This document shows, one piece after another, positions 45 through 23,191 of a stretch of DNA of 23,997 bases. The position numbers and the translations under genes were made by a program. Below the pieces are notes generated by a model, which was not told where the DNA came from, did not search any database, and saw only the letters and a program-made list of their open reading frames with translations. Within the stretch, counting starts at the first letter, position 1; every line of letters starts with the position of its first letter. The DNA is taken from positions 1-23,997 of IMG/VR virus record IMGVR_UViG_3300026534_000064; one strand, 5' to 3'. The stretch is from a virus.

Positions 45-121
<77 letters not shown>

Positions 122-336
122 ACAAAACCACGCAAAACCAAATAGTTAGAACGCGACAAAAACAGTCGTGTATAAACGTTGGCTGTTTACATCAACGCCA
201 CCTCAACGTTTGGTGCGCCCTCCAGAGCAATATCGTCGATCGGCGGAAGAATCGCTGTTTTTCAACGGGTTCGAAGTGATAAGCTCTGTGCATCATTGGC
301 GATCGCACGATTCATTACATCAGAAAGGATTTACCG

Positions 337-1287
337 ATGATCCGGGACATTATCCCCGATATCCACGGGCAGGCAGACAAGCTGACCGAACTTCTGAGCA
401 AACTCGGGTACCGCGAAACCCGCGGCACCTGGCGGCATCCGGAACCCGGGCGCTCGGTCGTGTTCCTGGGCGATTTCATCGACCGTGGGCCGGAGAACGC
501 CCGGGGGCTGCACATTGTTCGCTCCATGATCGATGTGGGCCATGCGCAGGAGATCATGGGCAATCACGAACTGAACGCCATCCATTTTCACACGCGGCAT
601 TCGTCGACCGGCTTGCCGCTCAGGGCACACAACGCCAAGAACCTCAAACAGCACGCGCGTTTTCTGGACGGCCACCCTGTTGACAGCGATGCTGCGCGCG
701 ACGCGATTGCGTGGATGAAAACCCTGCCTCTGTGGCTGGAATTCCCGGAGTTTCGGGTGATCCATGCCTGCTGGGATAGAAGAGCCATGGTAGGCGCCGA
801 ACGGCATCTGAACGACGCGCGCCTGGACGATCAGGCTGTGGAATGGTCTGCGGATCCCGACCACCCGCACTTCCAGGCGGTCGAAGTGCTGGCAAAGGGG
901 CCAGAGGCGCAACTGCCCGACGGCACCACATTCACCGACAAGGACGGGCATGAACGCCCGGAAATCCGCATGGCATGGTGGAAGACGGATGCGCGGACTT
1001 GGCAGGACATTGCCATCTGCGTACCCGACCCGGAAGCCCAGCTGCCCGCCGGCGCCCTGACTGCCGACATCGGTTATGAGCCCTACCCAGCGGACGCCAA
1101 GCCGGTTTTCTTCGGCCACTACTGGTTGAACGGGGAGATCGTCCTGCAGGCGCCCAACGCGCTGTGTCTGGATTACTCGGCGGGCAAGGAAGGACCGCTT
1201 GTCGCCTATAGTTTCCAGGAAGGAGCGCGTAAGCTCGATCTTGGAAATGTCGCCGTGGGGTGGCCTCAAGCGGATAACGAGATTTAA
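337..1287 (+). CDS. PPP-family metallophosphoesterase
   Basis: A 316-aa cytosolic phosphatase of the calcineurin-like superfamily. The metal-binding signatures stand in order: D8-x-H10-G (DIHGQ), GDFIDRG at 45-51 (the PPP-type GDxxDRG), and GNHE at 75-78. Later histidines (HACWD near 145 and FGHYW near 265) probably complete the di-metal site. Relatives hydrolyse phosphoprotein or dinucleoside polyphosphate substrates; the substrate here cannot be told. The ATG at 337 has AAAGGA seven bases upstream. The 3' end overlaps the start of the helicase gene by about 41 bp, so the two are probably one transcription unit and may act together. The 215 bp between the tRNA and this gene show no other gene. 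Confidence 0.85.
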   Translation: MIRDIIPDIHGQADKLTELLSKLGYRETRGTWRHPEPGRSVVFLGDFIDRGPENARGLHIVRSMIDVGHAQEIMGNHELNAIHFHTRHSSTGLPLRAHNAKNLKQHARFLDGHPVDSDAARDAIAWMKTLPLWLEFPEFRVIHACWDRRAMVGAERHLNDARLDDQAVEWSADPDHPHFQAVEVLAKGPEAQLPDGTTFTDKDGHERPEIRMAWWKTDARTWQDIAICVPDPEAQLPAGALTADIGYEPYPADAKPVFFGHYWLNGEIVLQAPNALCLDYSAGKEGPLVAYSFQEGARKLDLGNVAVGWPQADNEI

Positions 1288-4231
1288 GCTTTTGAACCGA
1301 TTGCAAAAACGTCCCCTTCTTGGATTGCTCGCAGATCCATTTGGCAAATGCCCGCAGGCCATGGAACTCGATGGAGATTTCCTGCGGGCTACGCGGCGTG
1401 GCATTGTCACATCGATGCCGTTGGAGGCACTAACATCTCCGCCTGAAATCAGGAAAGGGATGCTGGGCACCGCCCTGACCATCGAGTCTGGCGGACATGG
1501 CGACGTCACCCTGAAGGGGGCGCGCTTTTCGGATGCGCGGGCGTTCTCGGAAGAGGTGAGGAGCGCGTGGGTTCGGTTCAACCTGCTTGCCCTTGAAAAG
1601 GAAGCGGATCGTCTGGAAAGAATCCTCGCTGGAGTGAGGGCGCTGGAGGCACCCTCCCGATACCCGGCGGCGTGCCAAATTGCACCCTTGCTTGACGACA
1701 CCCGTGCCCTTGATGCCTCGCTGCTGTCAAAACTCCGGACCGAGGTCATCGGCGCCGAGGCAAACGAGCGTATTGCCCCCGTTCGGAATTTCTTAGCCGA
1801 CCCGCGGAAAGCGCGGGCCAATGGTATCGCCACCTTCGTCACTGCCGAACTGAACCGCTGGAAAGAGTTCTTCGACACGATCGAAAGCAATCCGCTGACC
1901 CCGGAACAGCGGCTATCCGTCGTCGTGGATGAGGATGCGACGCTCGTCCTGGCCGGGGCGGGATCGGGCAAGACCAGCGTCATCACCGCAAAGACGGCCT
2001 ATCTGGTCAAGGCAGGTATCCGGCAGCCGGACGAAATCCTGCTACTGGCATTCGCCAAGAACGCGGCTGAGGAGATGTCGGAAAGGGTCGAGGCGCGCTC
2101 CGGCGTGCCGATCGTGGCGCGGACCTTCCACGCCATTGCCTATGACATCATTGGCGTCGTCGAAGGATCGAAACCGGCGCTGGCTGACCACGCCACCGAC
2201 GACATGGCTTTCTCCAACCTGATCAAGCAGATCCTCAGAGACCTGGTGCATGCGCTATCAGAGGTCTCGACGGTGATCGTCGAGTGGTTTGCCCATTTCT
2301 TCGTTGAGCCGAAGAGCGAATGGGATTTCAAGACCAAGCATGAATTCTATTCGCATCTGGAAAGCCAGGACCTGCGCACGTTGCAGGGTGAAAAGGTCAA
2401 GAGCTACGAAGAACTGCAGATTGCCAACTGGCTTTACGAAAACGGCATCGGATACGAGTACGAACCCGTCTACGAGCACAAGGTCTCTGAAAATGGCAGA
2501 CGCGACTATCAGCCCGATTTCCGCCTGACCGAGAGCGGGATCTACATCGAGCATTTCGGGGTGCGTCGTCAAAAAACGTGGGATGGTAGCGAGCGATTGG
2601 TCACGGCCCCATTTGTGGATCGAGACGAGTATCTGGCCGGCATGGAGTGGAAGCGCAAGGTCCACGCCGAGCATGGAACCACCTTGATCGAAACCTACAG
2701 CTATGAGCGGCAAGAAGGGCGCCTGTTGACGGGGCTTGCAGAGAAGTTGGCCCCGCACGTCACACTGAAGCCACGTCCGGCGGACACGATCTATGACCGC
2801 ATAGTCGAGCTCAAGCAGGTCGATGACTTTTCGAAGCTGCTCGGCACGTTCCTGCGAAAGTTCAAGAGTGGCGCCTACACCCTGGAGGATTGCGAAACCA
2901 AGTCCGAGCGGGTGAAGCTGGGCAAGCGGGCCAAAGCGTTCCTCGACGTGTTTGCGCCGGTTTTCGAGGAATATCAGAAGCGGCTTGGCGGTCGGATCGA
3001 CTTTGAGGACATGATCCTGCGTGCCGCGCGTTACGTTGAAACCGGCCGCTATGTCAGCCCGTTTCGCCACATCCTGGTTGACGAGTTTCAGGACATCTCG
3101 CAAAGCCGCGCCCGGCTGGTGAAGGCGCTGAAGGCCCAGCATCCGGATGTCCGCATCTTTGCCGTGGGCGACGACTGGCAGTCGATTTTCCGCTTTGCCG
3201 GTTCCGATATCCATCTCATGCGCCATTTCGGCCGCGAATTTGGCGGACGCTTTGATGGTGAGGACGGGGTGCACAGGACCGTCGATCTCGGCCGCACCTT
3301 TCGGTCGGTCGATCAGATCGCCTTTGCGGCACGAACCTTCGTCCTGAGAAACCCGGCACAGATCGAAAAGAAGGTCATTCCGGCAGGGACGGCAACTGAA
3401 CCGGCAATCAGGATCGTGTCTGTATCGAAGGGCGAGAGCGAACAAGAGCTTTCCGGGGTGCTCGCGGCAATCGCTGCCAAGCTGGAGGAAGGCGCAACAC
3501 CTGCAAGCGTGCTGCTCCTCGGGCGGTATCGCTTCCTTGAACCTGACATGCGCAAGCTGAAGCGCCGTTTTCCGCAACTGCGGATAAGCTTCAAGACCAT
3601 CCATGCCTCGAAAGGTCTGGAGGCCGATCATGTGATCCTTCTGAACGCCGACAGTGGGCGGACCGGGTTCCCCTCGGAAATCGTCGATGACCCTCTACTT
3701 TCTCTGGTCTCGCCGGAAGAAGAGGCTTTCCATAACGCCGAGGAACGGCGCGTCATGTATGTCGCCATGACGCGGGCCCGTCACACCCTGACGATCCTCG
3801 CATCCAACGCGCGACCATCATCCTTTGTCACCGAGCTGAAAAAAGACCCCGACTACGGCATTGCCGCGCCACAAGGCGCGGAGTCGGAAGCCCATGTTTG
3901 CGGCGAGTGTGGCGGGCGGCTGCTGGGAGTGACAGGGAAGGATGGCCGCATCTGGTATCGCTGCGAGCATGTTCAGCATTGCGCAAACCTCCTGCCTGCC
4001 TGTCCGTCCTGTGAAACCGCGCTTCCGCGCCGCGCGGATGGCGCTGCCGAAGCTCGATGTGGCTGCGGCGCCAGCTATCCATCCTGCCCGGAATGCGAAG
4101 ACGGCTGGCTGGTCGAGCGCAGAGGGCGATACGGTCGTTTCCTCGGCTGTGTTCGATATCCCGCGTGCGTCGGGAAGGCCCGAATCCCGTCCAAAGAACG
4201 GCGCGCTTCGGCGATGAAGTCAAAGCGTTAA
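1247..4231 (+). CDS. UvrD/helicase IV-like SF1 helicase with nuclease-like insert and zinc ribbons
   Basis: About 994 aa from ATG 1247; the frame is open from a TTG at 1199, so the exact start is uncertain. SF1 helicase motifs appear in order: Walker A GAGSGKT (about 236-243), DEFQD Walker B (about 612), GDDWQSIFRFAG, TIHASKGLEADHV and VAMTRARHTL. Between motif I and the DEFQD motif is an insert of about 200 aa with YQPDF near residue 421 followed by IYIEHFG. This is the layout of a PD-(D/E)XK nuclease, but H replaces the usual lysine, as I recall for helicase IV-like proteins. The C-terminus (about 884-965) carries several CxxC pairs ending in a topoisomerase-type zinc ribbon (RRGRYGRFLGC). 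Probable role: 3'-5' DNA unwinding in repair or defence. It overlaps the phosphatase gene. Confidence 0.88.
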   Translation: MSPWGGLKRITRFKLLNRLQKRPLLGLLADPFGKCPQAMELDGDFLRATRRGIVTSMPLEALTSPPEIRKGMLGTALTIESGGHGDVTLKGARFSDARAFSEEVRSAWVRFNLLALEKEADRLERILAGVRALEAPSRYPAACQIAPLLDDTRALDASLLSKLRTEVIGAEANERIAPVRNFLADPRKARANGIATFVTAELNRWKEFFDTIESNPLTPEQRLSVVVDEDATLVLAGAGSGKTSVITAKTAYLVKAGIRQPDEILLLAFAKNAAEEMSERVEARSGVPIVARTFHAIAYDIIGVVEGSKPALADHATDDMAFSNLIKQILRDLVHALSEVSTVIVEWFAHFFVEPKSEWDFKTKHEFYSHLESQDLRTLQGEKVKSYEELQIANWLYENGIGYEYEPVYEHKVSENGRRDYQPDFRLTESGIYIEHFGVRRQKTWDGSERLVTAPFVDRDEYLAGMEWKRKVHAEHGTTLIETYSYERQEGRLLTGLAEKLAPHVTLKPRPADTIYDRIVELKQVDDFSKLLGTFLRKFKSGAYTLEDCETKSERVKLGKRAKAFLDVFAPVFEEYQKRLGGRIDFEDMILRAARYVETGRYVSPFRHILVDEFQDISQSRARLVKALKAQHPDVRIFAVGDDWQSIFRFAGSDIHLMRHFGREFGGRFDGEDGVHRTVDLGRTFRSVDQIAFAARTFVLRNPAQIEKKVIPAGTATEPAIRIVSVSKGESEQELSGVLAAIAAKLEEGATPASVLLLGRYRFLEPDMRKLKRRFPQLRISFKTIHASKGLEADHVILLNADSGRTGFPSEIVDDPLLSLVSPEEEAFHNAEERRVMYVAMTRARHTLTILASNARPSSFVTELKKDPDYGIAAPQGAESEAHVCGECGGRLLGVTGKDGRIWYRCEHVQHCANLLPACPSCETALPRRADGAAEARCGCGASYPSCPECEDGWLVERRGRYGRFLGCVRYPACVGKARIPSKERRASAMKSKR

Positions 4232-4727: not shown

Positions 4728-5009
4728 TCACCCGAACACCTTCAACTTCACCGCCACCCCTGCGATCAGCGCGAGCAGCAACCCGGTGGTGATCAGCCGC
4801 ACAATGGTCTGCCAGACAGTCCGCCGCGCCATGCGCAAGGATGCCAGCAGGGTGCGCAGGTCGCGGATGTCTACGGCTGCCTCGGGCCCCTCGAGGCCGA
4901 CATCGGCGAGTGCCTTGCGGGCACCCTTTTCGGCGGCGCGGGCCAGGATGGCCTCGAAATCTTCCTCGGGCATGCGGACAAAACCCGCGTCCTTGTGCGG
5001 TGGGGTCAC
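4728..5009 (-). CDS. DUF6127-like small membrane protein
   Basis: A 93-aa protein with a soluble, alanine- and glutamate-rich N-terminal helical part (MPEEDFEAILARAAEKGARKAL-like, residues 13-34) and one C-terminal membrane segment (about 70-88, rich in L, I, A, V). It starts at a GTG with AAGGA seven bases upstream; an internal ATG at residue 13 is an alternative. The layout fits the DUF6127 family of small prophage proteins downstream of the tail genes. Function is unknown; a membrane-anchored accessory or superinfection role is possible but unsupported. It lies 27 bp after the DUF2793 gene. Confidence 0.65.
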   Translation of the reverse strand: MTPPHKDAGFVRMPEEDFEAILARAAEKGARKALADVGLEGPEAAVDIRDLRTLLASLRMARRTVWQTIVRLITTGLLLALIAGVAVKLKVFG

Positions 5010-5036
5010 GGTCGTTTCCTTATCGATAGTTTGGGA

Positions 5037-5777
5037 TCAGACGGTCGGCACCGTCGGCATCAGATACTGGATGGCAATGCGGACATCGCCACCGGTGAAG
5101 TTGCCGCCGTTGGCGGTCAGCACAATCGGCGTGGGCGCATAGAATGCTTGCGGCCCGATCACCCCGACATTGGTGCTACCGGCGGCCACGCCGAGCGAGC
5201 CACCAAACTTGGCGGGTTCGCCGGCGATGCCGCAATCCCATGAGGTAGCTCCCAGCACGGCCGCGACAGTGCGGGTCGAGACCGCCAGCACGATGGCGCG
5301 GTCGGGGATGGCGATGGTGGAGGTGACGGTTGGACCGGTAAGCTCCGCCAGCAGCTCTTCCTCCACGTGCAGCCCGATGGCGGCCCCGCTCGCCCCCTGC
5401 GCCACCTCGACTGTAGGAGCCCGCACCAGCAGGTTCAGGGCCGTATCGAGCGAGAGCCACGCCCCGCCCACGCGCACGAACAGCACGCCCTGATCGTCGA
5501 TCCAGACCCGCCAGCCTTCCTGCGGGATCAATCTCACCCACGCCCCGCCGGTGAACAGCACCACGTCGCCGTCCCACCCGGCCCAGGCCCCTGTGGCGCC
5601 GGCGGCCACGATGTAGCGCTCGCCCTCGACCGGGCTAGCCGGGGGCGCGGGCAGATCACGGTCCTTCGCCGAGAGCTGGACTAGGCCGTCGAGGAGGGCC
5701 AGTGCCTCGTTGACGGTGACGTGCTTCTGGGCCTGGGCGGCGGCAAGCAGCGGCAGGGCGAGATTGGGCGTGGTCAT
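5037..5777 (-). CDS. DUF2793 phage tail-associated protein
   Basis: A 246-aa protein starting with TTPNLALPLLAAAQAQKHVTVNEAL, where the AQAQKHVTVNEAL part is the strong DUF2793 signature. Family members follow the tail-tip gene in alphaproteobacterial prophages and are thought to be tail fibre or tail-tip accessory proteins. Residues 1-110 form the DUF2793 core, with several tryptophan-rich turns (WAGWDGD, GAWVRL, GWRVWID). The rest (about 120-246) is rich in T, V, G and A, like a beta-structured receptor-facing module. A good GGAGG lies before ATG 5777, and the gene overlaps the upstream tail-tip gene by 4 bp (ATGA), so translation is coupled. Confidence 0.88.
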   Translation of the reverse strand: MTTPNLALPLLAAAQAQKHVTVNEALALLDGLVQLSAKDRDLPAPPASPVEGERYIVAAGATGAWAGWDGDVVLFTGGAWVRLIPQEGWRVWIDDQGVLFVRVGGAWLSLDTALNLLVRAPTVEVAQGASGAAIGLHVEEELLAELTGPTVTSTIAIPDRAIVLAVSTRTVAAVLGATSWDCGIAGEPAKFGGSLGVAAGSTNVGVIGPQAFYAPTPIVLTANGGNFTGGDVRIAIQYLMPTVPTV

Positions 5778-8700
5778 GGCGTGGCCTCCGTGATGGTGAG
5801 GGTGGTTGCAAGCGGCACGCCACGGCCCAGCGCGCCGAGCTGGAAGATGCGGACGGACAGGCTGGCGACCGGTGCGCCGAAATCGGCGGTCTGCATGGCG
5901 GCGGTGTAGAGGAAGCTCGGTGCAGTGAGACCAGTGACGGTGCGCACCACCGCACCGGCGTTCAGGATTTCCAGATCATAGCTTTCCGATGCTTCCGACA
6001 TGGGCACCTCCGCCAGTACCCAGCTGTCGGACGAGAGCGCCCGATCACGGCGGAGCCAGCGGATGGAGAGGTCGCCGTTTGCCTCACGCCGCATGTGCGC
6101 CTGTGCCGGCGCAAATGGCACAAGCCCGCGCCCCGAGGGCGTGAACGCGAGCGTCTGCATGATGGCGCCCGAGGGTGCGACATTGCCCGGCCCGATGCGC
6201 CAGTTCCATGGGATGCCGAGATCGGCTTCGGAGATCGAGATGGGCTGGACGGCGGTGTCGAGGATCACCACCCGCGCACCGGTGGTCGCCGGGTTGCCCA
6301 TGGCATCTTCCGTGCCCCGCTGCCCGCGCAGAAGGCGGGTGAGCCGATAGCGCCCGGTTGCCACGAGTTCCGCGTTCCCGAACTGGACGATCTCCCAGGC
6401 ACCTGGCGCACTTTCCACGGCCAGCGCGTTGGCGCCGTTCAGAAGCTCGGTATCGGTGACCGAAGCCAGCGTGCCCGAGGTGAGGTCCAGTAGCAGTTCG
6501 CTGCCCGCGTCAAACCGCCAGAGCGGCCCGGTGGGCAGATCAGCGGCCAGAACCCCCATGTGCGCCGGCGCTCCGATGGTGTCGAGCAGCTGGAAGCCGG
6601 ACGTGTCGACACTCCACCAGACCGCCCCGGTGCCGTACCACGGCCTCGCGAACACCGCCGCGTAAGGGCGATGCGCCGGCACCGTGTCGGCCAGCTGTGG
6701 CAGATCCATCAGAGCGATGTCAGCCGGCCCGAAGACGGTCGGCTCGGCCAGCTGCGGATCCCGACCCTTGCCCGGCGGCAGATCATAGAGCGCGGCGTCG
6801 ACGCGGATCGCTTCGATCACGCGCGCCCCGGAATCGGAGATGCGGGAAATCCCATATTCGACCCGCCGCCCGTCGTGATCAAGGGCGATCACGTCACCCG
6901 GGTCCAGCGCGAGGCGCGAGGGCGGCAACCGGGCGGTCAGCGTCTCGCGCCCCACCCAGGCCTCCATCAGCGCCCGGCGGCAGCGGCGGTCGGCTTCTTC
7001 CAGCGATACCGCCAGCGGGAAGGTCTCGGAGGATACCCGCGCCGCCTGCACGGTGGACCGGCGGGCTTCGACGGTGGCCGCGTTGTATTCTTCATCGGCC
7101 CGCACCAGCTGCCATTTGAGGGCTTGGGGCAGTTCGGTCTCCTGGCCCCTGGTGAGTTCCATGACCTCGGCCTGCCCATTGCCAACCATCTGATCCGGCG
7201 CAATGGTCACAACCACTGCCCGGCCGCGGGCACGAAACACGATCTGCCCACCGCTTTCCACCGCATCGAAGCCGAAATGGCGGGCCAGCACCGCGATCGA
7301 GGCGCGGAGGCTTTCCAGCGCGGCCACGGTGAAGCCCGGCACGATGTCGGAAAGCTCGGAGACATCCACGAGGCTGTCGTCCAAACCGGCCGCCCGGCAC
7401 AGGTCCCGCACCAGCGCGCCCAGCGAGACCTGCCCGAGCCGCCCGCCCATCCAGTGCCCCAGCCGCCAGTTGGCGGCGTCCGACCAGACATCGGCGCGCG
7501 CCGGGAAATCCGGAAAGGGCCGGGCATCCCAGGTCCAGAGTGCCGCCTCGCCGGTCTCGATCATCGGCGCGCCATAAACTGTTGAGACCGGGTTTTTCGT
7601 CGCATCGCCCCAATAGCCCAGCGTCGCTTCGACGTAGGCGCGCTGGATTGCCTCGTCCTGCCAGCCGCGCGAGAAGTACGGCAGGGCGCTTTCCGAACTC
7701 TTCGGATCGTAGAACACGTTCGGCTGGTTGGTGCCGCGATCCACGGCGGGGCAGCCGAACTCGGTGAAGCGGATCGGCTTGGCTTGCGGCGCCCAGCCGG
7801 TGGTGGACTGGCCCCAAGGCAGCACCTCGACGCCGTAGACCACGATGTCCTCGCCCGCGGTCGCCGAGCGCGGCCCGATGCGGAACCCCGCCGAGCCCGA
7901 CAGGCCCGCAGTGACGTCAAGGGTGATCTTCCACAGACCCGGATACACTTCCGTCTGGCTGGTGGCATTGATCACATGCGCCCCGGCCGCGGTGCTCTCC
8001 CACCCACCGATGGTACCAAAGAAGGACGCATGATCGGCGCCCGCGCCCAGCGCGAGATAGAGCGCGAAGTCCCCCGAACTGCCCGGAGCCACGAATGCCG
8101 CGATGGTCACCCGCTCGCCGGCCGTGAGCGTCCGATACCCCGGCGTTGCCCCGTGCCAGGTAGCCCCGTCAGAGGCGACGAGCGCTGGACTGGTAAACGG
8201 CCCGAAACTGCCGGTGGTGGCCGTGATGGTGACCGAGGACGGGTTCTTCGCGTAGGAACTCGGGTCGGCGCAATTCTGGAACCAGCCGAAGCGCACGCCG
8301 GCCAGGCGATCATGGTGCAGGTTCTGCCACCAGCTCCGCATGTCCTTCGGACGGAACAGCCATGGCTCGCCGTAGAAGCCGTCGCTGATCGGCGTCCTGA
8401 CCTGCGCATCACGGTCGGCATCGGCAGCATAAAACCAGTCGTAGCCCTCGCCGCCCTCGATGTTGGCCTTGAGATAGTCGAGATCCCGCACGGATGCCCA
8501 GCCGGCCTGGGCGTCCGCGTGATCGGTGCTGTCGCGCCAGTCGGAAAGCGGCAGATAATTGTCGATGCCGATGAAGTCGATGGCCGGGTCGGCCCACAGC
8601 GGATCGAGGTGGAACAGCGCATCTCCGGAGCCGTCCTGCGGCTGGTGGCCGAAATACTCGCTCCAGTCGGCGGCATAGCTGATCTTCGTGCCGGCCCCTA

Positions 8701-10207
8701 AGATCGAGCGCACGTCGGCGGCCAGCTGCTTCATGGCCGCAACCGCCGGATATGTGGTGGCGCTGTCGCGGATAGTGGTGAGGCCGACAAGCTCCGAGCC
8801 GATCAGGAAGGCGTCGACACCGCCCGCCGCCTTGCACAGATGCGCGTAGTGCAGGATCATCCGCCGGAAGCCCCAGTCATTGCCGCCGGTCCAGGTGACA
8901 CTCTCGCCGCTGACCGCGAAATCGGAGATCTGCGCGTTGCCGAAGAAGGCAGATACCTGCGTGGCCGCATCCGCCGTCTTGTCGACCGTGCCGGCAAACC
9001 CCGTCGCCGGCGAACAGGTGATGCGCCCGCGCCAGGGATGGGCCGGCTGGCCGACCGTGGCGGCATTGTCGCTGTAGGGATCGGGCAGGCTGTTGCCCTC
9101 CGGAATGTCCATCAGCAGGAAGGGATAGAAGGTCACCCGCAGGCCGCGGGCCTTCATCTCCTGAATGGCCTGTACCACCGAGAAATCCGTCGGCGTCCCG
9201 CCATAGTTGGTCCTGCCATCGGTATCCAAGCTGATCAGGTGGGCGCCGGCGCGATCCACCCCGTTCACGGACCATGTCTTCGGCGTGGTCGTCTTTGTGG
9301 CGGTCTCGACGCCGGGCTTCAGCTGACAGTTGCCCGCGCGCAGGTCGAGGCCGAACCAGCTTACGACCAGAGAGACATTCCCGATATTGGGCGCCGCCGC
9401 CTGCAGGTTGTCGAGCGATGCCAGGATGTCAGGCTGGCCGGTAGCGTTGTTCACGTTCTCGGAGGTCGTGTTGCCGCCTGAACCCCGGGTGATCGGCTCG
9501 GTCGCGTAGACGAACTCGCCGGAGCCCGGAATAATGGTGATGGACCTGACCATCCTCTCGGCTGTGTCCGCTTCCAGCAGCGGCCGGAACACCTCGAAGG
9601 AGAGCTGTGGGATGCGGTTGCCGAAGGGCGTGAGGTCGAGATCCTCGAACATGACGTAGGCGGTGCCCCGGTAGGCCGGGGCATTGCCTGTGCCCATCCT
9701 GGCCTCGATGAAGGGATCGGGCATTTGCGTCTCGTCGCCCTTGTAAAGCCGCCAGGTGACGCCCGACAGATCCAGCGGCTTGCCGTCCGCCCACACCCGC
9801 CCGATGCCGGAGATCGGCCCTTCGCAGAGCGCCACGGCGAAGGACGCGGTGTAGCTGTAGGTCGTGGTGGTGACCTTCGGCCTGCCGCCCTTGCCGCCAC
9901 CCGAGGTCGAGGTGCTGACATGCTCGGTGAAGTCGGTCGCCCATATGATGTTGCCTCCCATGCACATCCGGCCCCAGATGCGCGGGATCACCGCGCCTTC
10001 GGTGGATGTGGTGACGGCAAGGTTTTCCAGCCGCGCACCCTCGATCCGCTGGCCGGGCGCCAATGATGAGACGATCCAGCTGTCGACCAGCGATCCCGCC
10101 ATGGAGCCGATGACCCCACCGATGACGGCCGAGGACACGCCAAGGATGCCGCCGCCGATGGATGCCCCGATTGCGGAGCCGGCGGAGGCGAGAAGGATCG
10201 AGGCCAT
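5774..10207 (-). CDS. tail-tip/host-specificity protein with TIM-barrel domain (GTA gp15-like)
   Basis: A 1477-aa protein of the GTA/phage TIM-barrel tail family, which forms the distal tail hub and probably contacts or digests the cell envelope. Residues 1-50 are a glycine/alanine-rich hydrophobic segment as in tail-hub proteins. The TIM-barrel-like region runs from about 330 to 900 with landmarks FLIGSELVGL, FIGIDNYLPLSDWRD, GEPWLFRPKD and FTEFGCPAVDRGTNQPN. The rest is the phage-tail part (about 950-1200), then beta-rich C-terminal modules. The barrel is interrupted at about 650-803 by a Ser/Thr/Gly-rich segment that resembles a carbohydrate-binding beta-sandwich. It starts 3 bp after the NlpC/P60 stop. 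Confidence 0.92.
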   Translation of the reverse strand: MASILLASAGSAIGASIGGGILGVSSAVIGGVIGSMAGSLVDSWIVSSLAPGQRIEGARLENLAVTTSTEGAVIPRIWGRMCMGGNIIWATDFTEHVSTSTSGGGKGGRPKVTTTTYSYTASFAVALCEGPISGIGRVWADGKPLDLSGVTWRLYKGDETQMPDPFIEARMGTGNAPAYRGTAYVMFEDLDLTPFGNRIPQLSFEVFRPLLEADTAERMVRSITIIPGSGEFVYATEPITRGSGGNTTSENVNNATGQPDILASLDNLQAAAPNIGNVSLVVSWFGLDLRAGNCQLKPGVETATKTTTPKTWSVNGVDRAGAHLISLDTDGRTNYGGTPTDFSVVQAIQEMKARGLRVTFYPFLLMDIPEGNSLPDPYSDNAATVGQPAHPWRGRITCSPATGFAGTVDKTADAATQVSAFFGNAQISDFAVSGESVTWTGGNDWGFRRMILHYAHLCKAAGGVDAFLIGSELVGLTTIRDSATTYPAVAAMKQLAADVRSILGAGTKISYAADWSEYFGHQPQDGSGDALFHLDPLWADPAIDFIGIDNYLPLSDWRDSTDHADAQAGWASVRDLDYLKANIEGGEGYDWFYAADADRDAQVRTPISDGFYGEPWLFRPKDMRSWWQNLHHDRLAGVRFGWFQNCADPSSYAKNPSSVTITATTGSFGPFTSPALVASDGATWHGATPGYRTLTAGERVTIAAFVAPGSSGDFALYLALGAGADHASFFGTIGGWESTAAGAHVINATSQTEVYPGLWKITLDVTAGLSGSAGFRIGPRSATAGEDIVVYGVEVLPWGQSTTGWAPQAKPIRFTEFGCPAVDRGTNQPNVFYDPKSSESALPYFSRGWQDEAIQRAYVEATLGYWGDATKNPVSTVYGAPMIETGEAALWTWDARPFPDFPARADVWSDAANWRLGHWMGGRLGQVSLGALVRDLCRAAGLDDSLVDVSELSDIVPGFTVAALESLRASIAVLARHFGFDAVESGGQIVFRARGRAVVVTIAPDQMVGNGQAEVMELTRGQETELPQALKWQLVRADEEYNAATVEARRSTVQAARVSSETFPLAVSLEEADRRCRRALMEAWVGRETLTARLPPSRLALDPGDVIALDHDGRRVEYGISRISDSGARVIEAIRVDAALYDLPPGKGRDPQLAEPTVFGPADIALMDLPQLADTVPAHRPYAAVFARPWYGTGAVWWSVDTSGFQLLDTIGAPAHMGVLAADLPTGPLWRFDAGSELLLDLTSGTLASVTDTELLNGANALAVESAPGAWEIVQFGNAELVATGRYRLTRLLRGQRGTEDAMGNPATTGARVVILDTAVQPISISEADLGIPWNWRIGPGNVAPSGAIMQTLAFTPSGRGLVPFAPAQAHMRREANGDLSIRWLRRDRALSSDSWVLAEVPMSEASESYDLEILNAGAVVRTVTGLTAPSFLYTAAMQTADFGAPVASLSVRIFQLGALGRGVPLATTLTITEATP

Positions 10208-10210
10208 GGG

Positions 10211-10750
10211 TCAGCTCACTGGAAAGCGGAAGGCGAAGGCGATGCGACGGCGCCAGGGGTCGGTCATTGGCTCTTCGATGACCCCGGTACGCTCGTAGGC
10301 GTGAATGAAACGGGTACGCCCGCTGCGGTACGAATGCCCACCATGATCGCACCGCGACGACAGAATCCCCGCATGCTTGGCAATCGCCCCCCGGCGCATT
10401 CGGAACAGCACCACGTCGCCGGTGCGGACCTGGGCAACGGCAACCTCCACCATCGCCGCCCGTGCAGCCTCGGCCAGCACCTCGACAGGGCCGGTCTCGC
10501 CCCAATCCCTTGAATACGGTGGCACCGGCATCGGTTCCGGGCCGACGACTTCCCGCCACACGCCCCGGATCAGCCCGAGGCAGTCGCAGCCGACGCCCTT
10601 CACCGACGCCTGGTTGTGATAGGGCGTGCCGATCCAGCTTCGTGCGGCGGCAACCACCGCGGCGTTTCCTGATGGGCTTCGAGTGGCGGAAGATTTGGAT
10701 TTGGTACCTTTTGGCATCATTACCGATCTGTATGCTCCGTAATACCGCAC
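10211..10750 (-). CDS. NlpC/P60 tail peptidase (GTA gp14-like), N-terminus altered
   Basis: A 179-aa cell-wall peptidase of the NlpC/P60 family that accompanies phage and GTA tail tips and cuts peptidoglycan during DNA entry. The catalytic cysteine is in GCDCLGL (about residues 53-59) and the histidine in KHAGIL (about 125). The conserved family part begins around VVAAARSWIGTPY. The preceding 30 residues (GTG at 10750, or ATG at 10720/10717) are lysine/serine-rich, unlike the family, and come from AT-rich DNA shared with the inserted cassette. No convincing ribosome binding site precedes any of these starts. The insertion of 10839-12654 seems to have separated this gene from DUF2163 and replaced its start. 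Confidence 0.88.
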   Translation of the reverse strand: MRYYGAYRSVMMPKGTKSKSSATRSPSGNAAVVAAARSWIGTPYHNQASVKGVGCDCLGLIRGVWREVVGPEPMPVPPYSRDWGETGPVEVLAEAARAAMVEVAVAQVRTGDVVLFRMRRGAIAKHAGILSSRCDHGGHSYRSGRTRFIHAYERTGVIEEPMTDPWRRRIAFAFRFPVS

Positions 10751-10762
10751 GTTGGTGGGCGT

Positions 10763-10832
10763 TTGATCCTTATTTGATGCTAGATTATGACATTAACAGG
10801 TATTATTTAGTAAGTGTAATCCCGCTTGGAGG
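10763..10832 (+). promoter_or_regulatory. AT-rich putative promoter and ribosome binding site of the HTH operon
   Basis: An AT-rich gap of 88 bp between the divergent NlpC/P60 and HTH genes, in sharp contrast to the GC-rich phage DNA. It contains TTGATC (10763-10768) and TTGATG (10774-10779) as possible -35 boxes and TTATGA (10785-10790) or TATTAT (10801-10806) as possible -10 boxes; none of the pairs is ideally spaced. A clear GGAGG (10828-10832) stands six bases before ATG 10839. An autoregulatory operator for the HTH protein could lie here, but I see no perfect palindrome. Confidence 0.35.
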
Positions 10833-10838
10833 CAAATC

Positions 10839-11846
10839 ATGAAACAACCCATCCGCCCAGCAACACTGAAAGCCATGCGCGAACGTCGGGGGCTGTCGCA
10901 AGCAAAGCTTGAGGCCCGCAGCGACGAGATGCGCCTGAAGGTCGGCATCGCCACCATCAAACGCATTGAGACTTGGACCAAAACCGATGTGTACATGGCC
11001 AGTACGGCTGTTGCGGAAAGGCTGGCGAAAGTTCTCGGCGTCGCTGTCGAAGACCTGGCCAAAGAACCCTCGGCCGACAGCTTTGATCGGTCAAAAAAGC
11101 TCAGAAAGCTTGGCATGCGGCAATTACGCGCGGCTGTGCACGAAAACACTTCCCTTGCCTTCCGGATGGTCGAACATCTTTATGGCATCCCGGTTCGGGC
11201 ACAGATCGAGATGGCGCCGCTCTGCATGGCACTTCTGGCTGAAGGCAGCCTTGCCTGGCGCAGAAAGAGATTGGCCGAAATCGAGCAGAAAGCAGAAGAA
11301 CTCATGTCGCTCGGTGGCGGAAACTTTTCCTTCGCCCATGCCGTGTACCGTACGCAGGACGCCGCCTGCGAAGAGGAAGAGTCAATCCGCAAGCGCGACG
11401 TGTTCGGCCGGGAAGTCGCCGAAGACACCTACGATCTGGGCTACGATCCAAACACCAACAACCCCTTTGCCGACTACCTGAGGGAACTGGCGCGGAACCT
11501 GGACGAGGCGGATTTCGCACTGGACCCCGACGGTATTCGCGAAATTGGTCTCCACGGTTTCCCGGAATATCGGATCGGCGCGGTGATGCTGGATGAACTT
11601 ACCGGCGGCAACGCGGACGCGGAATACGCGCTGGCATGCGGCCACGTCAAGCTTGCCGACATCCCGGATGAGTTGCTCGGCGAAGACAACACCGAAAAGC
11701 GCATCGAATGGATCGTATCGCATATCCCTGAAGAGGAACTGGCGGATCGCAGGGAGGCGCGGGCAGAACTCCAGAAGCTGTTTTCCAGCATCGACATAGA
11801 TATCTCGACGAGCGATCGCGATAACCAAGGGGGGCATTCAAAGTGA
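10839..11846 (+). CDS. XRE-type HTH protein with long C-terminal domain
   Basis: A 335-aa cytosolic protein. Residues 9-72 form a Cro/C1-type helix-turn-helix (LKAMRERRGLSQAKLEARS, then IATIKRIETW and AERLAKVLGV). The remaining 260 aa are acidic, helical and without a motif I recognise; repeats with a TPR-like feel (ALLAEGSLAWRRKRL, EYALACGHVKLADI) suggest a sensor or oligomerisation domain. It is the first gene of a three-gene operon on the strand opposite to the phage late genes. Its stop overlaps the next start (GTGA). Likely role: autoregulator and possibly antitoxin or sensor of the cassette. This is inferred from position and the HTH only. Confidence 0.8.
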   Translation: MKQPIRPATLKAMRERRGLSQAKLEARSDEMRLKVGIATIKRIETWTKTDVYMASTAVAERLAKVLGVAVEDLAKEPSADSFDRSKKLRKLGMRQLRAAVHENTSLAFRMVEHLYGIPVRAQIEMAPLCMALLAEGSLAWRRKRLAEIEQKAEELMSLGGGNFSFAHAVYRTQDAACEEEESIRKRDVFGREVAEDTYDLGYDPNTNNPFADYLRELARNLDEADFALDPDGIREIGLHGFPEYRIGAVMLDELTGGNADAEYALACGHVKLADIPDELLGEDNTEKRIEWIVSHIPEEELADRREARAELQKLFSSIDIDISTSDRDNQGGHSK

Positions 11847-12142
11847 TTCACGATATTGCACTCACCAATCATGCAGAACAGCGAATGCGACAAAGAGGAA
11901 TCCGTGACGCCGACATCGGCCTGTTGCTGACAGTCGCGGAACGTGTTTCCGAAGATGCCCTTTTGCTCACCCGGCAGAGGGCCGCTCGGGAAATCGAGCG
12001 TCGTCGTCGCGAAATCCAGCAGCTCGAGAGGTTGCGCGGGACCAGGCTGATCATCGAAGATGGTGCGCTCGTCACCGTCTATCATGAGCATCGCTCGGGA
12101 AACCGCGCCAAGCGGGCGTTTCGGAACAGGAGGAAATCATGA
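11843..12142 (+). CDS. DUF4258-like small protein, candidate RNase-type toxin
   Basis: A 99-aa basic protein starting at GTG 11843, preceded by a G-run (GGGGGG) as ribosome binding site. Its N-terminus has the DUF4258 pattern: a T-x-H-A-E-x-R-x-x-Q-R-G-I motif (residues 8-20), then a helix, a strand (TRLIIEDGALVTVYH) and an arginine-rich tail. DUF4258 proteins are related in fold to RelE-type toxins and often sit beside HTH proteins in toxin-antitoxin-like pairs. Here it lies between an HTH gene and a DNA-binding-like gene with 4-bp overlaps on both sides (GTGA and ATGA). Toxin activity is inferred, not shown. Confidence 0.68.
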   Translation: MIHDIALTNHAEQRMRQRGIRDADIGLLLTVAERVSEDALLLTRQRAAREIERRRREIQQLERLRGTRLIIEDGALVTVYHEHRSGNRAKRAFRNRRKS

Positions 12143-12654
12143 ATACGGAAGTTCATTTCACGGCAGGAATTCTCGTACCTCTTGATGAGCAGACAGTGGC
12201 AAGGCTTCTGTCGCAGCAAAATGCCGGCGAGTCCCTTGCCGATGTGATTGATCGCCTGTGTTCTCGTGAAGAGGCGACCGTTGATTCCCGCGTGATGCCC
12301 ACCGCGATCGAGCCGATGGCGGGGAAGTACAAGGCGACGTTTCTTGGAGAAACCGTCAGTGGAGAAACCCTGCCTGCTCTTTTCTCACGGATCGTCGACA
12401 TGGTCGCTGAGATCGACCCGGCCGCACTTGAAAGGCTGGCAAACATGAAGGCTCGGACCCGGAGATATGTTGCCCGGACCAAAGAAGTGATCCACCCGGG
12501 CCGCCCCGACCTTCCAGTCATGCGCACTCGCACGGGCTGGTGGATCAGCGCGAATGTGGGAACGGAAGACATTGCCCGGAACCTGCGTGCGCTTGCAGAC
12601 GCTGCAGGGCTGTCTTTTGGGCGCGACATTCGATTTCCTTCAGGCAAGGATTGA
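12139..12654 (+). CDS. protein with SeqA-like two-domain layout
   Basis: A 171-aa protein with a strong AGGAGG before ATG 12139. Residues 10-45 (ILVPLDEQTVARLLSQ, then GESLADVIDRL) look like a ribbon-helix-helix dimerisation unit, similar to the start of SeqA (GESASDILRRML). Residues 75-168 follow the pattern of the SeqA C-terminal domain: a helical lead ending in ARTRRYVA (SeqA: GRTRVYFA), a basic loop, TGWWISANVGT (SeqA: TPYWVITNTNT) and a terminal helix. SeqA binds hemimethylated GATC and delays re-initiation. The match is from memory and remote, so the function is a hypothesis. The stop codon abuts the DUF2163 stop on the other strand with no gap. Confidence 0.6.
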   Translation: MNTEVHFTAGILVPLDEQTVARLLSQQNAGESLADVIDRLCSREEATVDSRVMPTAIEPMAGKYKATFLGETVSGETLPALFSRIVDMVAEIDPAALERLANMKARTRRYVARTKEVIHPGRPDLPVMRTRTGWWISANVGTEDIARNLRALADAAGLSFGRDIRFPSGKD

Positions 12655-13539
12655 TCACAGCACACCCCCGGTATTCGAATCGCCCTTGGCCGCGTACCGG
12701 ATCACGGTGTCCTGGCCCGGAATGTGCGGGAAGCCCCGGAAATTGGCCGCGTTGGCGAACTTGGCCTTGCAGGTCTCGAAGGTCTTGTCGCAACCGGCGG
12801 TGATGTCGAACGTATCTCCCACAGCAATGGCCGGCACCGGGGCTCCCAGCAGTGTGATGGTCACGTCCGTCGATCCCACCGCGTGGGTCATGATCTCGGC
12901 CTTGCGCCCCGCATTGGCGCCGCCGGTCCAGGTGAGCATGCCCAGCGCGAACCAGCCGTCGGCGAAGCCCGAGAGCCCCGAGGTGGTGAAGGCCCGGTCG
13001 CTGTCGACCGTCACGACCGTTCCGCTACCCTTGTAGGCGGGATCATTCAGATTCACCCCGCAGCGCGCATCGCCGAGCGCCGCGTCGCAGCTCGCCTGAA
13101 ATGTCCGCCCGACGCTCTGACCCAGCACATGGGCCAGCGGGCGCATCTCGGCCACGAACTGCACCTGCCCGCGGCGCACCTGGCCGATGGCACCCCGGCG
13201 CATCAGCACGCGCTGACTTACGTCCTGCCAGTTCACGCGCCAGATCTCGACCGCCGCATTGTCCCAGCGCCCGTCGAGAATGTCGGTCTCGGTAATGGTG
13301 GTGGAGGTCAGAACGCCTTCGGCATCCTGCGCATCGACCGAGAGGTCAGAGCCGGAGCGGATTTCTGAGGCGGTGAAGCCGGATTCCGGCTGAAACGTCG
13401 TGCCGTCAAACGTCAGCGCCAGGTCATGGTCGGTGAAGCCGAACACCTGCCCGTCTGAACGGGTCAATCGCCAGCACCAGGCAAGTGTTGTGGTGCCGCC
13501 GTCGAGATGGGCCTGCAGGCCAGTGGGGAGGGTCTTCAT
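12655..13539 (-). CDS. DUF2163 phage tail protein (GTA gp13-like)
   Basis: A 294-aa distal tail protein of the DUF2163 family (BR0599-like), probably part of the tail-tip hub and stabilised by bound metal or disulphides. Typical features are the N-terminal LQAHLDGGTTTLAWCWRLTR, a cysteine-bearing segment FQASCDAALGDARCGVNL near 150-165, and the C-terminal CDKTFETCKAKF...NFRGFPHIPG signature. The complete C-terminus shows that the adjacent insertion did not truncate it. It overlaps the spanin-like gene upstream by 4 bp. In GTA clusters the peptidase gene follows directly; here 1.9 kb of foreign + strand genes separates them. Confidence 0.92.
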   Translation of the reverse strand: MKTLPTGLQAHLDGGTTTLAWCWRLTRSDGQVFGFTDHDLALTFDGTTFQPESGFTASEIRSGSDLSVDAQDAEGVLTSTTITETDILDGRWDNAAVEIWRVNWQDVSQRVLMRRGAIGQVRRGQVQFVAEMRPLAHVLGQSVGRTFQASCDAALGDARCGVNLNDPAYKGSGTVVTVDSDRAFTTSGLSGFADGWFALGMLTWTGGANAGRKAEIMTHAVGSTDVTITLLGAPVPAIAVGDTFDITAGCDKTFETCKAKFANAANFRGFPHIPGQDTVIRYAAKGDSNTGGVL

Positions 13540-13775
13540 CGGCAGGTTCCCGTCATGCGGTCGTCGAGATCGGCGATCCAGCGTGCCCAGGTTGGCGGGA
13601 CGGTGGCAATGGTCTGCGCCGGAGGTCGCGCGAGCCGCGCCTCGCCATAGGCCGCGCAGCCCGCATCACCAGCGCCCATCGTTGCGGCGCAACCGCTCAG
13701 CAGGATCAGAATTGCGACCGTCGCGAACCGCCTTGCGCCCCGCCTCCAGCTTTCTGAGCGTCTCTTCATATGCAT
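13536..13775 (-). CDS. Rz1-like outer-membrane spanin lipoprotein
   Basis: A 79-aa lipoprotein: basic start (MKRRSESWRRGARR), hydrophobic stretch FATVAILILLSG and lipobox LSGC, followed by an alanine/proline-rich region (LARPPAQT) and a short tail. That is the design of phage o-spanins, which link the outer membrane to the inner-membrane spanin during lysis. GGGAGG at 13785-13790 lies nine bases before ATG 13775; the in-frame ATGs at 13817 and 13769 fit less well. Its first 110 bp overlap the i-spanin gene in another frame, as in Rz/Rz1 pairs. It is coupled to DUF2163 through a 4-bp overlap. Confidence 0.72.
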   Translation of the reverse strand: MHMKRRSESWRRGARRFATVAILILLSGCAATMGAGDAGCAAYGEARLARPPAQTIATVPPTWARWIADLDDRMTGTCR

Positions 13776-13893
13776 CGCGTTCGGCCTCCCGTTTACGTGC
13801 GCGCTTTCCCTCCACACGGCCCCAGAGGCGGCCGAGCACCAGCCCCCCGAGCGCGCCCAGCGCTGCCACCAGCCAGATCAGGACCTCAGCCAT
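13666..13893 (-). CDS. Rz-like inner-membrane spanin
   Basis: A 75-aa protein with one N-terminal transmembrane helix (VLIWLVAALGALGGLVLGRLW, residues 4-24) followed by a highly charged coiled-coil-like helix (KRARKREAERDAYEETLRKLEAGRKAV). This is the i-spanin design: a membrane anchor with a periplasmic coiled coil. An in-frame upstream extension to 13983 exists, but it overlaps the real small gene before it, and the ATG at 13893 gives the sensible N-terminus. It partly overlaps the lipoprotein gene in another frame. Very short for an Rz, so it could alternatively be a holin accessory. Confidence 0.65.
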   Translation of the reverse strand: MAEVLIWLVAALGALGGLVLGRLWGRVEGKRARKREAERDAYEETLRKLEAGRKAVRDGRNSDPAERLRRNDGRW

Positions 13894-13987
13894 CGCCCTG
13901 TTCTCCCCGTGCCGCGGCGACACACAGGGCGACGACCAGAACACCAAGGCAGCCGCCCAGGATGAATCCTGCAAGAAACTCAATCAT
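13886..13987 (-). CDS. tiny single-pass membrane protein (DUF3789-like)
   Basis: A 33-aa frame that starts with ATG at 13987, overlaps the end of the holin-like gene by 8 bp and ends inside the start of the i-spanin gene (GATGGCTGA). The peptide begins MIEFLAGFILGGCLGVLVV and continues ALCVAAARGEQGDG: one membrane helix with a short charged tail. It resembles the very short DUF3789-type proteins I recall near phage lysis genes. It is too short for standard gene finders. A role in lysis timing (holin modulator) is inferred from the position alone. Confidence 0.6.
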   Translation of the reverse strand: MIEFLAGFILGGCLGVLVVALCVAAARGEQGDG

Positions 13988-14210
13988 CGCCGCGGAACCC
14001 CCGTTCGATCCGATCGCGCAGGCCGATCAGGCCGAGACCGAGGAAGATCAGCCCGGCGGGCGAGGCGTCACCGGTGCCGGCGAACAGCGCCACGAGGCGG
14101 GACAGTTCGCCCAGCGCGCCCGTGGCGGGCAGGGCAACGGAGGCGATGCCGGTGAGCATGGCAAGGCACCCCGCCCACCATGTGAGCGAGGTCGGTCGGA
14201 TGTAGCGCAT
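13980..14210 (-). CDS. holin-like membrane protein
   Basis: A 76-aa protein with two predicted membrane segments (WWAGCLAMLTGIASVALPA, residues 11-29, and AGLIFLGLGLIGL, about 52-64) and a charged C-terminus (RDRIERGFRGDD). Size, topology and position directly after the endolysin gene fit a phage holin or pinholin that releases or activates the lysozyme. An AAAGGAGC ribosome binding site overlaps the lysozyme stop region. No holin family signature is recognisable, so the call rests on topology and context. Confidence 0.65.
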   Translation of the reverse strand: MRYIRPTSLTWWAGCLAMLTGIASVALPATGALGELSRLVALFAGTGDASPAGLIFLGLGLIGLRDRIERGFRGDD

Positions 14211-14215
14211 GGGGA

Positions 14216-14878
14216 TCAGCTCCTTTTGAACAGGCGAGAGAGGATGGTGGCCAGCCGGGCGAGAAACCCGGTCGGCATAGCGGGTTCGAATGTGGATGGG
14301 GGCGGTGCTGGCGTCGGGCGAAGCAGCGACAGGGCCTGCGTCTCGGTGAGCCGACGGACGCGGCGCGAGAAGTCGACGCGTCCCTGCGCGTCTACGCCCC
14401 AGACCGGGATCGGACCGCTGGGATAGCGGCCATCGCGGAACAGGTCCCGCTCGGCTTCGCGCCGCGAGATCACCGAGGCCGGCCGCCGCCAGTACAGAAA
14501 CGCGTTGGCGGCGCGGGCGCGATTGCCCGTATTGAGATGCCGGGTCAACGCCGCCCGGGCAATGCCGCTGGTGTTGTAATGGAAGCTGACCAGCGCATCG
14601 AATTCGTGGGGCTCGAGCGGAACCGTGATGGCGCGCCGTACCTCGGCTTCGTATCGCTCGAGATCGGAGCGGAACAGGTGGAACGCCCTGCGGATCGCGG
14701 CGTCGATATCTGCGGGCATGCCCCGGGGCATGATGGCCGGGTCCGGGTCACCGGCGGCTACCGTGTGACCGATCCCGAAGGTCCAGGTGCCGGTGGCATC
14801 GAGATAGGGTGCGGGCACGATACCCTCGTGCCGGGCAAGGGCCAGCAGCCCGCGGTTGGTCATTCTCTGTGCGGTCAT
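14216..14878 (-). CDS. phage lysozyme/endolysin (GH24)
   Basis: A 220-aa muramidase of the T4-lysozyme class that cleaves peptidoglycan at the end of the lytic cycle. The catalytic pattern E-8x-D-5x-T is exact: E18, D27, T33, followed by FGIGHT (34-39). Later conserved parts include EFDALVSFHYNTS (about 93-105) and RREAERDLFRDG. The C-terminal 50 residues hold a proline-rich linker (PTPAPPPS) and a basic amphipathic tail (FLARLATILSRLFKRS), which could associate with membrane or cell wall. No signal peptide, so export would need the holin. Its start overlaps the DUF2460 stop by 4 bp. Confidence 0.9.
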   Translation of the reverse strand: MTAQRMTNRGLLALARHEGIVPAPYLDATGTWTFGIGHTVAAGDPDPAIMPRGMPADIDAAIRRAFHLFRSDLERYEAEVRRAITVPLEPHEFDALVSFHYNTSGIARAALTRHLNTGNRARAANAFLYWRRPASVISRREAERDLFRDGRYPSGPIPVWGVDAQGRVDFSRRVRRLTETQALSLLRPTPAPPPSTFEPAMPTGFLARLATILSRLFKRS

Positions 14879-15501: not shown

Positions 15502-15504
15502 GGC

Positions 15505-18294: not shown

Positions 18295-18296
18295 GG

Positions 18297-19235: not shown

Positions 19236-19263
19236 TGTTCAGTCCTTTCGGTTGATGTGGAGA

Positions 19264-19692: not shown

Positions 19693-19796
19693 GATTGTTT
19701 CTGGTTCTTGTGGCGGTTGATAGAGTTCGGGATTTCGGCCCAAGTACGACTGCGAGAACGGCGTTTGCGACATCTGCGAGCGGATCGGCAGGACTT

Positions 19797-19802
19797 TATA
19801 AT
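19797..19802 (+). promoter_or_regulatory. possible -10 box upstream of the viperin gene
   Basis: A perfect TATAAT at 19797-19802 in the 272-bp divergent gap (19693-19964) between the minor tail gene and the viperin gene. The matching -35 at 17-bp spacing (CTGCGA, 19774-19779) is poor. It would leave a leader of about 155 nt before the viperin start. The rest of the gap shows no gene. Confidence 0.3.
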
Positions 19803-21043: not shown

Positions 21044-21084
21044 TTGGCGTCCCGGCCTGGAAGATGGAAATCCGTTGTGGGACC

Positions 21085-22128: not shown

Positions 22129-22148
22129 GGATTACAACCTTCGCAACT

Positions 22149-23172: not shown

Positions 23173-23191
23173 CTGACCACATTCATGGCAT

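What the first reader, a model, noticed from the sequence alone, without database searches (positions are those of the whole stretch)
337..4231. PPP phosphatase overlapping a nuclease-insert helicase next to tRNA-fMet
The two genes overlap by about 41 bp and lie between a tRNA and the prophage end. The helicase combines SF1 motors, a PD-(D/E)XK-like insert with H in place of K (IEHFG), and zinc ribbons. A phosphatase-helicase pair in this location could be a defence or repair module. Helicase IV-like proteins alone are known; the tight pairing with a PPP phosphatase is what is unusual.
Basis: partly seen in the sequence, partly recalled or inferred. Interest (0 to 1): 0.5.

Follow-up and report, generated by a model that had tools for sequence, protein, structure and literature searches.

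The report
Prophage helicase-nuclease beside an unrelated phosphatase
A DNA-unwinding enzyme with a built-in DNA-cutting domain sits at the end of a bacterial virus integrated at a tRNA gene, where related viruses carry changing anti-virus genes; the phosphatase next to it is a chance neighbour, but the helicase looks like an untested defence protein.

Summary
Both genes are real, but the finding's main point fails. The helicase starts at a conserved TTG (1292), four bases after the phosphatase stop, so there is no overlap. The pair is not conserved: among 83 other helicase loci the phosphatase occurs near one, on the opposite strand. In 341 Rhodobacterales genomes the helicase occurs in 30 and the phosphatase in 16; two have both, on different contigs (1.4 expected).

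The helicase is the interesting part. It is accessory (about 9% of the sample) and in 16 of 84 loci lies directly beside the same phage late-gene module. A relative shows the whole element: a roughly 54-kb prophage between tRNA-fMet and a 47-bp copy of the tRNA's 3' half, with the helicase at the tRNA end. The gene between tRNA and helicase varies. Of 73 nearest non-phage neighbours, at least 10 match known defence or WYL-regulator models at E<=1e-20; of 73 control genes, none do. The insert folds (pLDDT 94) like Vsr/EDxHD-type endonucleases.

Best reading: a temperate-phage cargo gene encoding a UvrD/helicase IV-like motor with an embedded Vsr-like nuclease, probably acting against competing mobile DNA. 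Defence is inferred, not shown.

The parts
45..121 (+). tRNA-fMet (CAT); its 3' half (about 45 nt, tRNA nt 33-77) is the integration core
   Evidence: ARAGORN; copies of this core delimit elements in relatives
122..336 (.). left arm of the element between tRNA and phosphatase; window 75-452 is 94.7% identical to L002, where it follows an integrase, a PDC-S46 gene and the core
337..1287 (+). PPP-family metallophosphatase, 316 aa; variable cargo slot
   Evidence: Pfam Metallophos 2.1e-7; weak NCBIfam matches to Pnkp, PrpE and ApaH, all below cut-off; nearest solved chain 4j6o
1292..4231 (+). UvrD/helicase IV-like SF1 helicase with embedded nuclease, 979 aa, TTG start
2369..2749 (+). Vsr/EDxHD-like nuclease insert (protein residues 360-486; E374, D409, E420-H421, K454 and E467 invariant in 48 sequences)
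3899..4171 (+). three Cys-rich zinc ribbons (residues about 870-960), the last a topoisomerase C4 type
   Evidence: Zn_ribbon_Top1 1.1e-9; invariant Cys at 870, 873, 891, 897, 904, 907, 923, 925, 932, 935, 953, 959
4728..23992 (-). siphophage late module, reading towards the helicase: tail fibre-like, 1477-aa tail protein (phrog_4271), tail assembly, tape measure and minor tail genes, among genes without a match

Best explanation
The window is the tRNA-fMet end of a temperate siphophage integrated in the 3' half of tRNA-fMet. The phosphatase and helicase are two separately acquired cargo genes in the interval between the attachment site and the phage late genes; they are not a functional unit. 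The helicase is a single-protein helicase-nuclease. Its motor is of the UvrD/Rep/helicase IV kind; a Vsr/EDxHD-like nuclease sits in the region between the N-terminal motor motifs and motif II (subdomain 1B by analogy with UvrD), and zinc ribbons at the C terminus probably hold DNA. Most likely it is expressed in the lysogen from its own TTG-started gene, loads on single-stranded or branched DNA of an incoming or replicating phage or plasmid, translocates, and cuts the DNA, protecting the lysogen and so the prophage. Shown: gene structure, prophage location (whole element seen in a relative), accessory distribution, defence-gene neighbourhood, predicted fold, invariant active-site-like residues. 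Inferred: nuclease activity, substrate, expression in the lysogen, antiviral effect.
For: Location: 16 of 84 distinct helicase loci (window included) have the same phage late genes directly downstream. 12 of the 48 close loci (window included) have a complete tRNA-fMet (7) or a 45-48-nt 3' fragment of it (5) within 5 kb upstream. In G003 (L019) the element runs from tRNA-fMet 49-125 through a SoFic gene, helicase 1717-4650, late genes, terminase, and an integrase at 47468-48721 to a core copy at 54133-54179. Accessory: 30 of 341 genomes. Defence neighbourhood: of 73 nearest non-phage, non-IS neighbours in 44 loci, 10 named proteins hit PADLOC at E<=1e-20 (SoFic in L016, L019, L047; WYL in L014, L029; HmaC in L020; type I REase in L050; ZorD in L086; PD-T4-3 in L049; AriAB in L041), against 0 of 73 control genes; Fisher p 0.0014 for 10 against 0. 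Fold: insert pLDDT 93.8; structural matches to I-Bth0305I (Z 9.9, 91 aligned, rmsd 2.3), Vsr (Z 8.4), TnsA (Z 7.8). Motor: Rep Z 28.2, PcrA Z 26.9. Conservation: Walker A, DEFQD, E374, D409, E420, H421, K454 and E467 invariant in 48 sequences.
Against: No functional data. Of the 73 neighbours PADLOC reports only a minority, two of the ten named hits are WYL regulators, and the three SoFic hits come from related prophages, so they are not independent. The control stretches come from arbitrary Rhodobacterales genome positions, not from other mobile islands, so general island enrichment is not separated from defence enrichment. A canonical catalytic Lys is missing at the ExK place (F422). Foldseek gave no match at E<=0.001 for the insert (best relevant I-Bth0305I 0.062, prob 0.99), and by sequence no solved chain is significant. 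In 68 of 84 loci no late module was detected downstream, though many contigs are short. In G004 and G069 no tRNA-fMet lies in the 120 or 100 kb fetched.
Confidence: 0.6

Rival explanations
1. One reading: phosphatase and helicase form a two-gene defence or repair module.
For: Same strand and a 4-nt gap in the window. One other locus, L066, has a 52%-identical phosphatase as the nearest called gene, about 1.7 kb from a 60%-identical helicase, but on the opposite strand. A phosphatase homologue on a Marinobacter plasmid sits beside a WYL protein and near a DEAD/DEAH helicase.
Against: In 83 other helicase loci (71 with at least 1000 nt upstream) only L066 shows the phosphatase. In 27 helicase-bearing genomes the phosphatase is in 1, the genome of L066. 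In 341 genomes: helicase 30, phosphatase 16, both 2 and on different contigs; 1.4 expected, Fisher p 0.64. None of 18 phosphatase loci, with short flanks, shows a helicase.
Confidence: 0.05
2. The helicase serves the phage itself: replication, recombination or packaging of its own DNA, with the nuclease resolving branched intermediates.
For: It lies inside the prophage. The insert has a weak resemblance to phage endonuclease I (Pfam 20 bits, below the 29.1 cut-off), a junction-cutting enzyme (recalled).
Against: It is transcribed towards the late operon's end on the opposite strand and lies far from the integrase-side genes, which in G003 are at the other end. Most homologues have no phage late genes downstream (68 of 84), and some sit beside Zorya, type I restriction or Mza genes.
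Confidence: 0.15
3. The helicase is a host DNA-repair gene of the helicase IV kind caught next to a prophage.
For: It scores 434.6 bits with the NCBI helicase IV model.
Against: Below that model's cut-off of 543; in only 30 of 341 genomes; the tree mixes Rhodobacterales and Hyphomicrobiales (at least 6 label changes forced by starred branches); inside an integrated element in G003.
Confidence: 0.1
4. The helicase works with a neighbouring defence system as an accessory subunit rather than alone.
For: It stands near Hma (L020), Zorya (L086), type I restriction (L050) and Mza genes (L008).
Against: The neighbours differ from locus to locus, and no single partner recurs outside related prophages.
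Confidence: 0.1

Closest known systems
E. coli helicase IV (HelD) and UvrD/Rep/PcrA
   Same: SF1A motor, helicase IV-like N-terminal region, high scores with UvrD and helicase IV models; structural match Z 24-28
   Different: Carries a nuclease insert of about 100 residues and C-terminal zinc ribbons; falls below the helicase IV equivalog cut-off; accessory, not core
Vsr / EDxHD endonucleases (Vsr, I-Bth0305I)
   Same: Fold of the insert (Z 8.4 and 9.9); invariant helix Glu, Asp in PDF, and a His next to the second acidic residue
   Different: Embedded in a helicase; here the second strand reads E-H; activity untested
Gabija GajB
   Same: UvrD-like helicase in phage defence; PADLOC GajB models hit at 145.7 bits
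   Different: No GajA (OLD nuclease) partner next to it; the nuclease is built in
ARMADA YprA helicase-Vsr fusions (PMC12458937, passages read)
   Same: Helicase plus Vsr-type nuclease in an anti-phage context
   Different: YprA is a DEAD/DEAH-box helicase with a C-terminal nuclease in a multi-gene system; here a UvrD-type helicase with an internal nuclease
KKP, prophage kinase-kinase-phosphatase module (PMC11341870, passages read)
   Same: A phosphatase carried by a prophage as defence cargo
   Different: PP2C phosphatase with two kinases; here a PPP-type phosphatase, with a helicase and no kinase as its neighbours in the window

Membership tests
UvrD-like SF1A helicase | UvrD N- and C-terminal domain models above cut-off | tested here: met
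   PF00580 149 bits (cut-off 23), PF13361 53.6 (25.6)
Helicase IV (HelD) equivalog | NCBIfam NF008276 at or above 543 bits; Pfam Helicase_IV_N at or above 24.5 | tested here: not met
   434.6 bits and 22.2 bits
PD-(D/E)XK nuclease, canonical | Asp plus (D/E)xK on successive strands | tested here: not met
   D409 and E420 invariant but the K place holds F422; an invariant K454 lies in the next helix and could be a migrated Lys (inference)
Vsr/EDxHD endonuclease | Fold | tested here: met
   Z 9.9 to I-Bth0305I over 91 of 97 target residues, 8.4 to Vsr; Foldseek E only 0.062 for I-Bth0305I
Vsr/EDxHD endonuclease | E, D, xH, D catalytic residues in register | tested here: inconclusive
   E374, D409 and H421 invariant; the last position would be E467 rather than D; no residue-level superposition was available and the motif register is recalled
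Gabija | GajA (OLD nuclease) encoded next to GajB | tested here: not met
   The upstream gene is a metallophosphatase; the gene downstream has no Pfam match
Two-gene phosphatase-helicase system | Conserved adjacency and co-occurrence | tested here: not met
PrpE / ApaH / Pnkp phosphatase equivalogs | NCBIfam curated cut-off | tested here: not met
   50.7 of 340, 37.4 of 176, 65.8 of 750 bits
PPP-type metallophosphatase | Pfam Metallophos above cut-off and intact metal ligands | tested here: met
   32 bits, cut-off 21.5; ligands invariant in 19 sequences
Prophage cargo (moron) at a tRNA attachment site | Gene lies between the attachment core copies of an integrated element | tested here: met
   Met in relative G003; in the window itself only the tRNA end is present, the other end lies outside
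Anti-phage defence system | Reduces phage or plasmid propagation | not testable with these tools
   Only neighbourhood evidence

The most novel reading that the evidence does not exclude
A so far undescribed, widespread single-protein immune system: a UvrD/helicase IV-like motor with a Vsr/EDxHD-type nuclease built into the region that should touch duplex DNA ahead of the fork. It is carried by a family of tRNA-fMet-integrating temperate phages as their standing defence gene, beside a slot that swaps further defence genes.
Probability: 0.45. Interest if true: 0.55.

Novelty: new variant of a known kind. Interest (0 to 1): 0.36.

Why it matters
If true, it adds a one-gene helicase-nuclease to the defence genes carried by temperate phages, shows a prophage end at tRNA-fMet that works as an exchange slot for defence genes in Rhodobacterales, and gives a function to a class annotated only as 'UvrD-helicase domain-containing protein' on plasmids of other bacteria. 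It also corrects an apparent gene pair that would have misdirected experiments.

Tried and rejected
The two-gene module was tested by co-occurrence and adjacency and rejected. The 41-bp overlap was rejected by the conserved TTG start. Helicase as housekeeping was rejected. A Gabija reading was rejected for want of GajA. The phage endonuclease I resemblance of the insert is below the Pfam cut-off and its PDB sequence match is not significant (E 0.21), so it is kept only as a weak hint; that phage endonuclease I does not stand among the 50 listed structural matches says nothing either way. Literature: ten searches were submitted and nine ran; titles and abstract starts in those listings name no such helicase. 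Passages only were read of PMC3943268, PMC12458937 and PMC11341870. I do not claim that it is nowhere in print. The helicase loci are the best 80 of 144 confirmed relatives in genome contigs plus those of viral contigs, duplicates removed. The neighbours of the 36 more distant helicase loci were not scanned with PADLOC, because the full list of 136 neighbours exceeded the residue limit; 73 of 136 were scanned. The control list was cut from 117 to 73 genes to match. The 30 proteins were picked by eye.
Full report
What is there. The window is a virus record of 23,997 bases. It begins 44 bases before a tRNA-fMet (45-121). A phosphatase frame (337-1287) and a helicase frame ending at 4231 follow on the same strand, and from about 4.7 kb to the end phage genes run on the opposite strand: tail fibre-like, a 1477-aa tail protein, tail assembly, tape measure and minor tail genes. 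The overlap is not: the helicase homologues share an N-terminal sequence whose first codon is TTG in 51 of 56 loci where the place could be read (sequences). In the window this is TTG 1292, four bases after the phosphatase stop.

Is the pair real? Three tests say no. First, 83 other distinct helicase loci were read (84 with the window), 71 of them with at least 1000 nt upstream; the phosphatase appears in one, L066, about 1.7 kb away on the opposite strand, although there it is the nearest called gene. Second, of 27 genomes carrying the helicase, one (that of L066, G023) carries the phosphatase. Third, in 341 genomes drawn from the order of Rhodovulum (L015), the phosphatase occurs in 16 (E<=1e-20) and the helicase in 30 (E<=1e-180). 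Two have both, on different contigs; chance gives 1.4 and Fisher's p is 0.64. L002, a virus contig, shares the window's arm from the attachment core into the phosphatase (window 75-452, 94.7%) and then diverges inside that gene, another sign that the phosphatase is a passing cargo gene. Three plasmid relatives of it that I looked at sit in unrelated surroundings (38 plasmid records matched).

What the helicase's home is. I divided the 84 loci by identity to the window into 48 close (66% or more, window included) and 36 more distant ones. In 16 of 84 the same phage late genes lie directly downstream. In 7 of the 48 a complete tRNA-fMet lies within 5 kb upstream, and in 5 more a 45-48-nt fragment of its 3' half. 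The genome of L019 (G003; Cereibacter ovatus by the title) shows the whole arrangement: tRNA-fMet 49-125, SoFic-like gene, helicase, late genes, terminase, integrase at 47468-48721, core copy at 54133-54179, then two more stretches each ending in another core copy at 69141 and 76459. So elements pile up at this tRNA, and the helicase is inside the first, at the tRNA end. Between tRNA and helicase the gene changes: phosphatase here; a ParE-type toxin with a small partner gene in L007, L015, L035, L038, L039; SoFic in L016, L019, L047. Results against a simple picture: in G004 and G069 only pieces of the late module lie beside the helicase and no tRNA-fMet is in the 120 or 100 kb fetched, and most loci have no late genes in reach. 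These may be remnants or other carriers.

Defence neighbourhood. I first picked 30 neighbouring proteins by eye; several are strong matches: HmaA, HmaB and HmaC in L020, ZorA-D in L086, type I restriction in L050, type III methyltransferase in L022, MzaB/MzaC in L008, PDC-S46 in L002, PD-T4-3 in L049 and AriAB-like in L041. To avoid selection I then took the nearest upstream and downstream gene of at least 100 aa within 4 kb, leaving out phage-late and IS clusters, for the close relatives: 73 genes from 44 loci. 54 PADLOC models hit members at E<=1e-20; 10 proteins can be named, two of them WYL regulators. A control of 73 genes from 20 arbitrary stretches of genomes of the same order gave no hit. 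Fisher's p for 10 against 0 is 0.0014. The three SoFic genes share descent, and the control does not represent mobile islands, so this is strong but not final.

The protein. The motor matches Rep, PcrA and UvrD (Z 24-28). The helicase IV equivalog model scores 434.6 bits against a cut-off of 543, so it is helicase IV-like, not helicase IV. The predicted structure is good (mean pLDDT 82.9), and the insert folded alone is better (93.8). Its best structural matches are the homing endonuclease I-Bth0305I catalytic domain (Z 9.9, rmsd 2.3, 91 aligned), two chains of a mitochondrial ribosome (Z 9.5 and 9.2), Vsr (8.4) and TnsA (7.8). Foldseek itself gave nothing at E<=0.001. PMC3943268 (passages read) describes I-Bth0305I as the exemplar of the EDxHD family, with a metal-dependent mechanism like PD-(D/E)xK enzymes. 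In 48 sequences E374, D409, E420, H421, K454 and E467 never vary. The three zinc ribbons keep all their cysteines.

How it probably works. By analogy with UvrD (recalled), the insert lies where subdomain 1B meets duplex DNA; so a motor pulling along one strand would carry the nuclease at the junction. I infer cutting of branched or replicating foreign DNA, in the interest of the prophage. Helicase-Vsr combinations are known in defence: PMC12458937 (passages read) describes a predicted active Vsr-type nuclease at the C terminus of YprA helicases in ARMADA. Phage tests are missing.

Spread. The helicase tree mixes Rhodobacterales and Hyphomicrobiales (8 changes of the label, at least 6 forced by supported branches; a quick tree with some long branches), in line with mobility. 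More distant homologues are on 48 plasmid records, all under 60% identical and 28 of them Acinetobacter, and on 5 phage records.

Verdict.

Noticed in passing
window 1292; 51 of 56 helicase loci: The rare start codon TTG is kept at the same place in 51 of 56 homologues, which hints at deliberately low translation.
   Followed up: partly
window 10839-12654 +: A small group of genes on the opposite strand, the first with a helix-turn-helix, interrupts the tail gene cluster between the 1477-aa tail protein and the tail assembly gene; it looks like a second cargo slot.
   Followed up: no
L002 5740-6627: A chimeric gene: the first codons of the window's phosphatase joined to another reading frame, directly after an attachment core, a PDC-S46 defence gene and an integrase.
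   Followed up: partly
G003:C28 49693-53705 (L138): At the integrase end of the same prophage lie a 350-aa and a 987-aa gene that look like further cargo; not identified with any family search.
   Followed up: no
G003:C28 54133, 69141, 76459: Tandem elements at one tRNA-fMet, each closed by a copy of the 45-47-nt tRNA 3' core.
   Followed up: partly
window 5774-15501 -: The tail module (1477-aa tail protein, 294-aa and 208-aa genes) recalls gene transfer agent tail genes in order and size (recalled likeness), but the tape measure gene is long.
   Followed up: no
L122 (Marinobacter plasmid pMAQU02): A homologue of the phosphatase sits near a WYL protein, an STY4851 family protein and a DEAD/DEAH helicase, so the phosphatase may have defence contexts of its own.
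   Followed up: no
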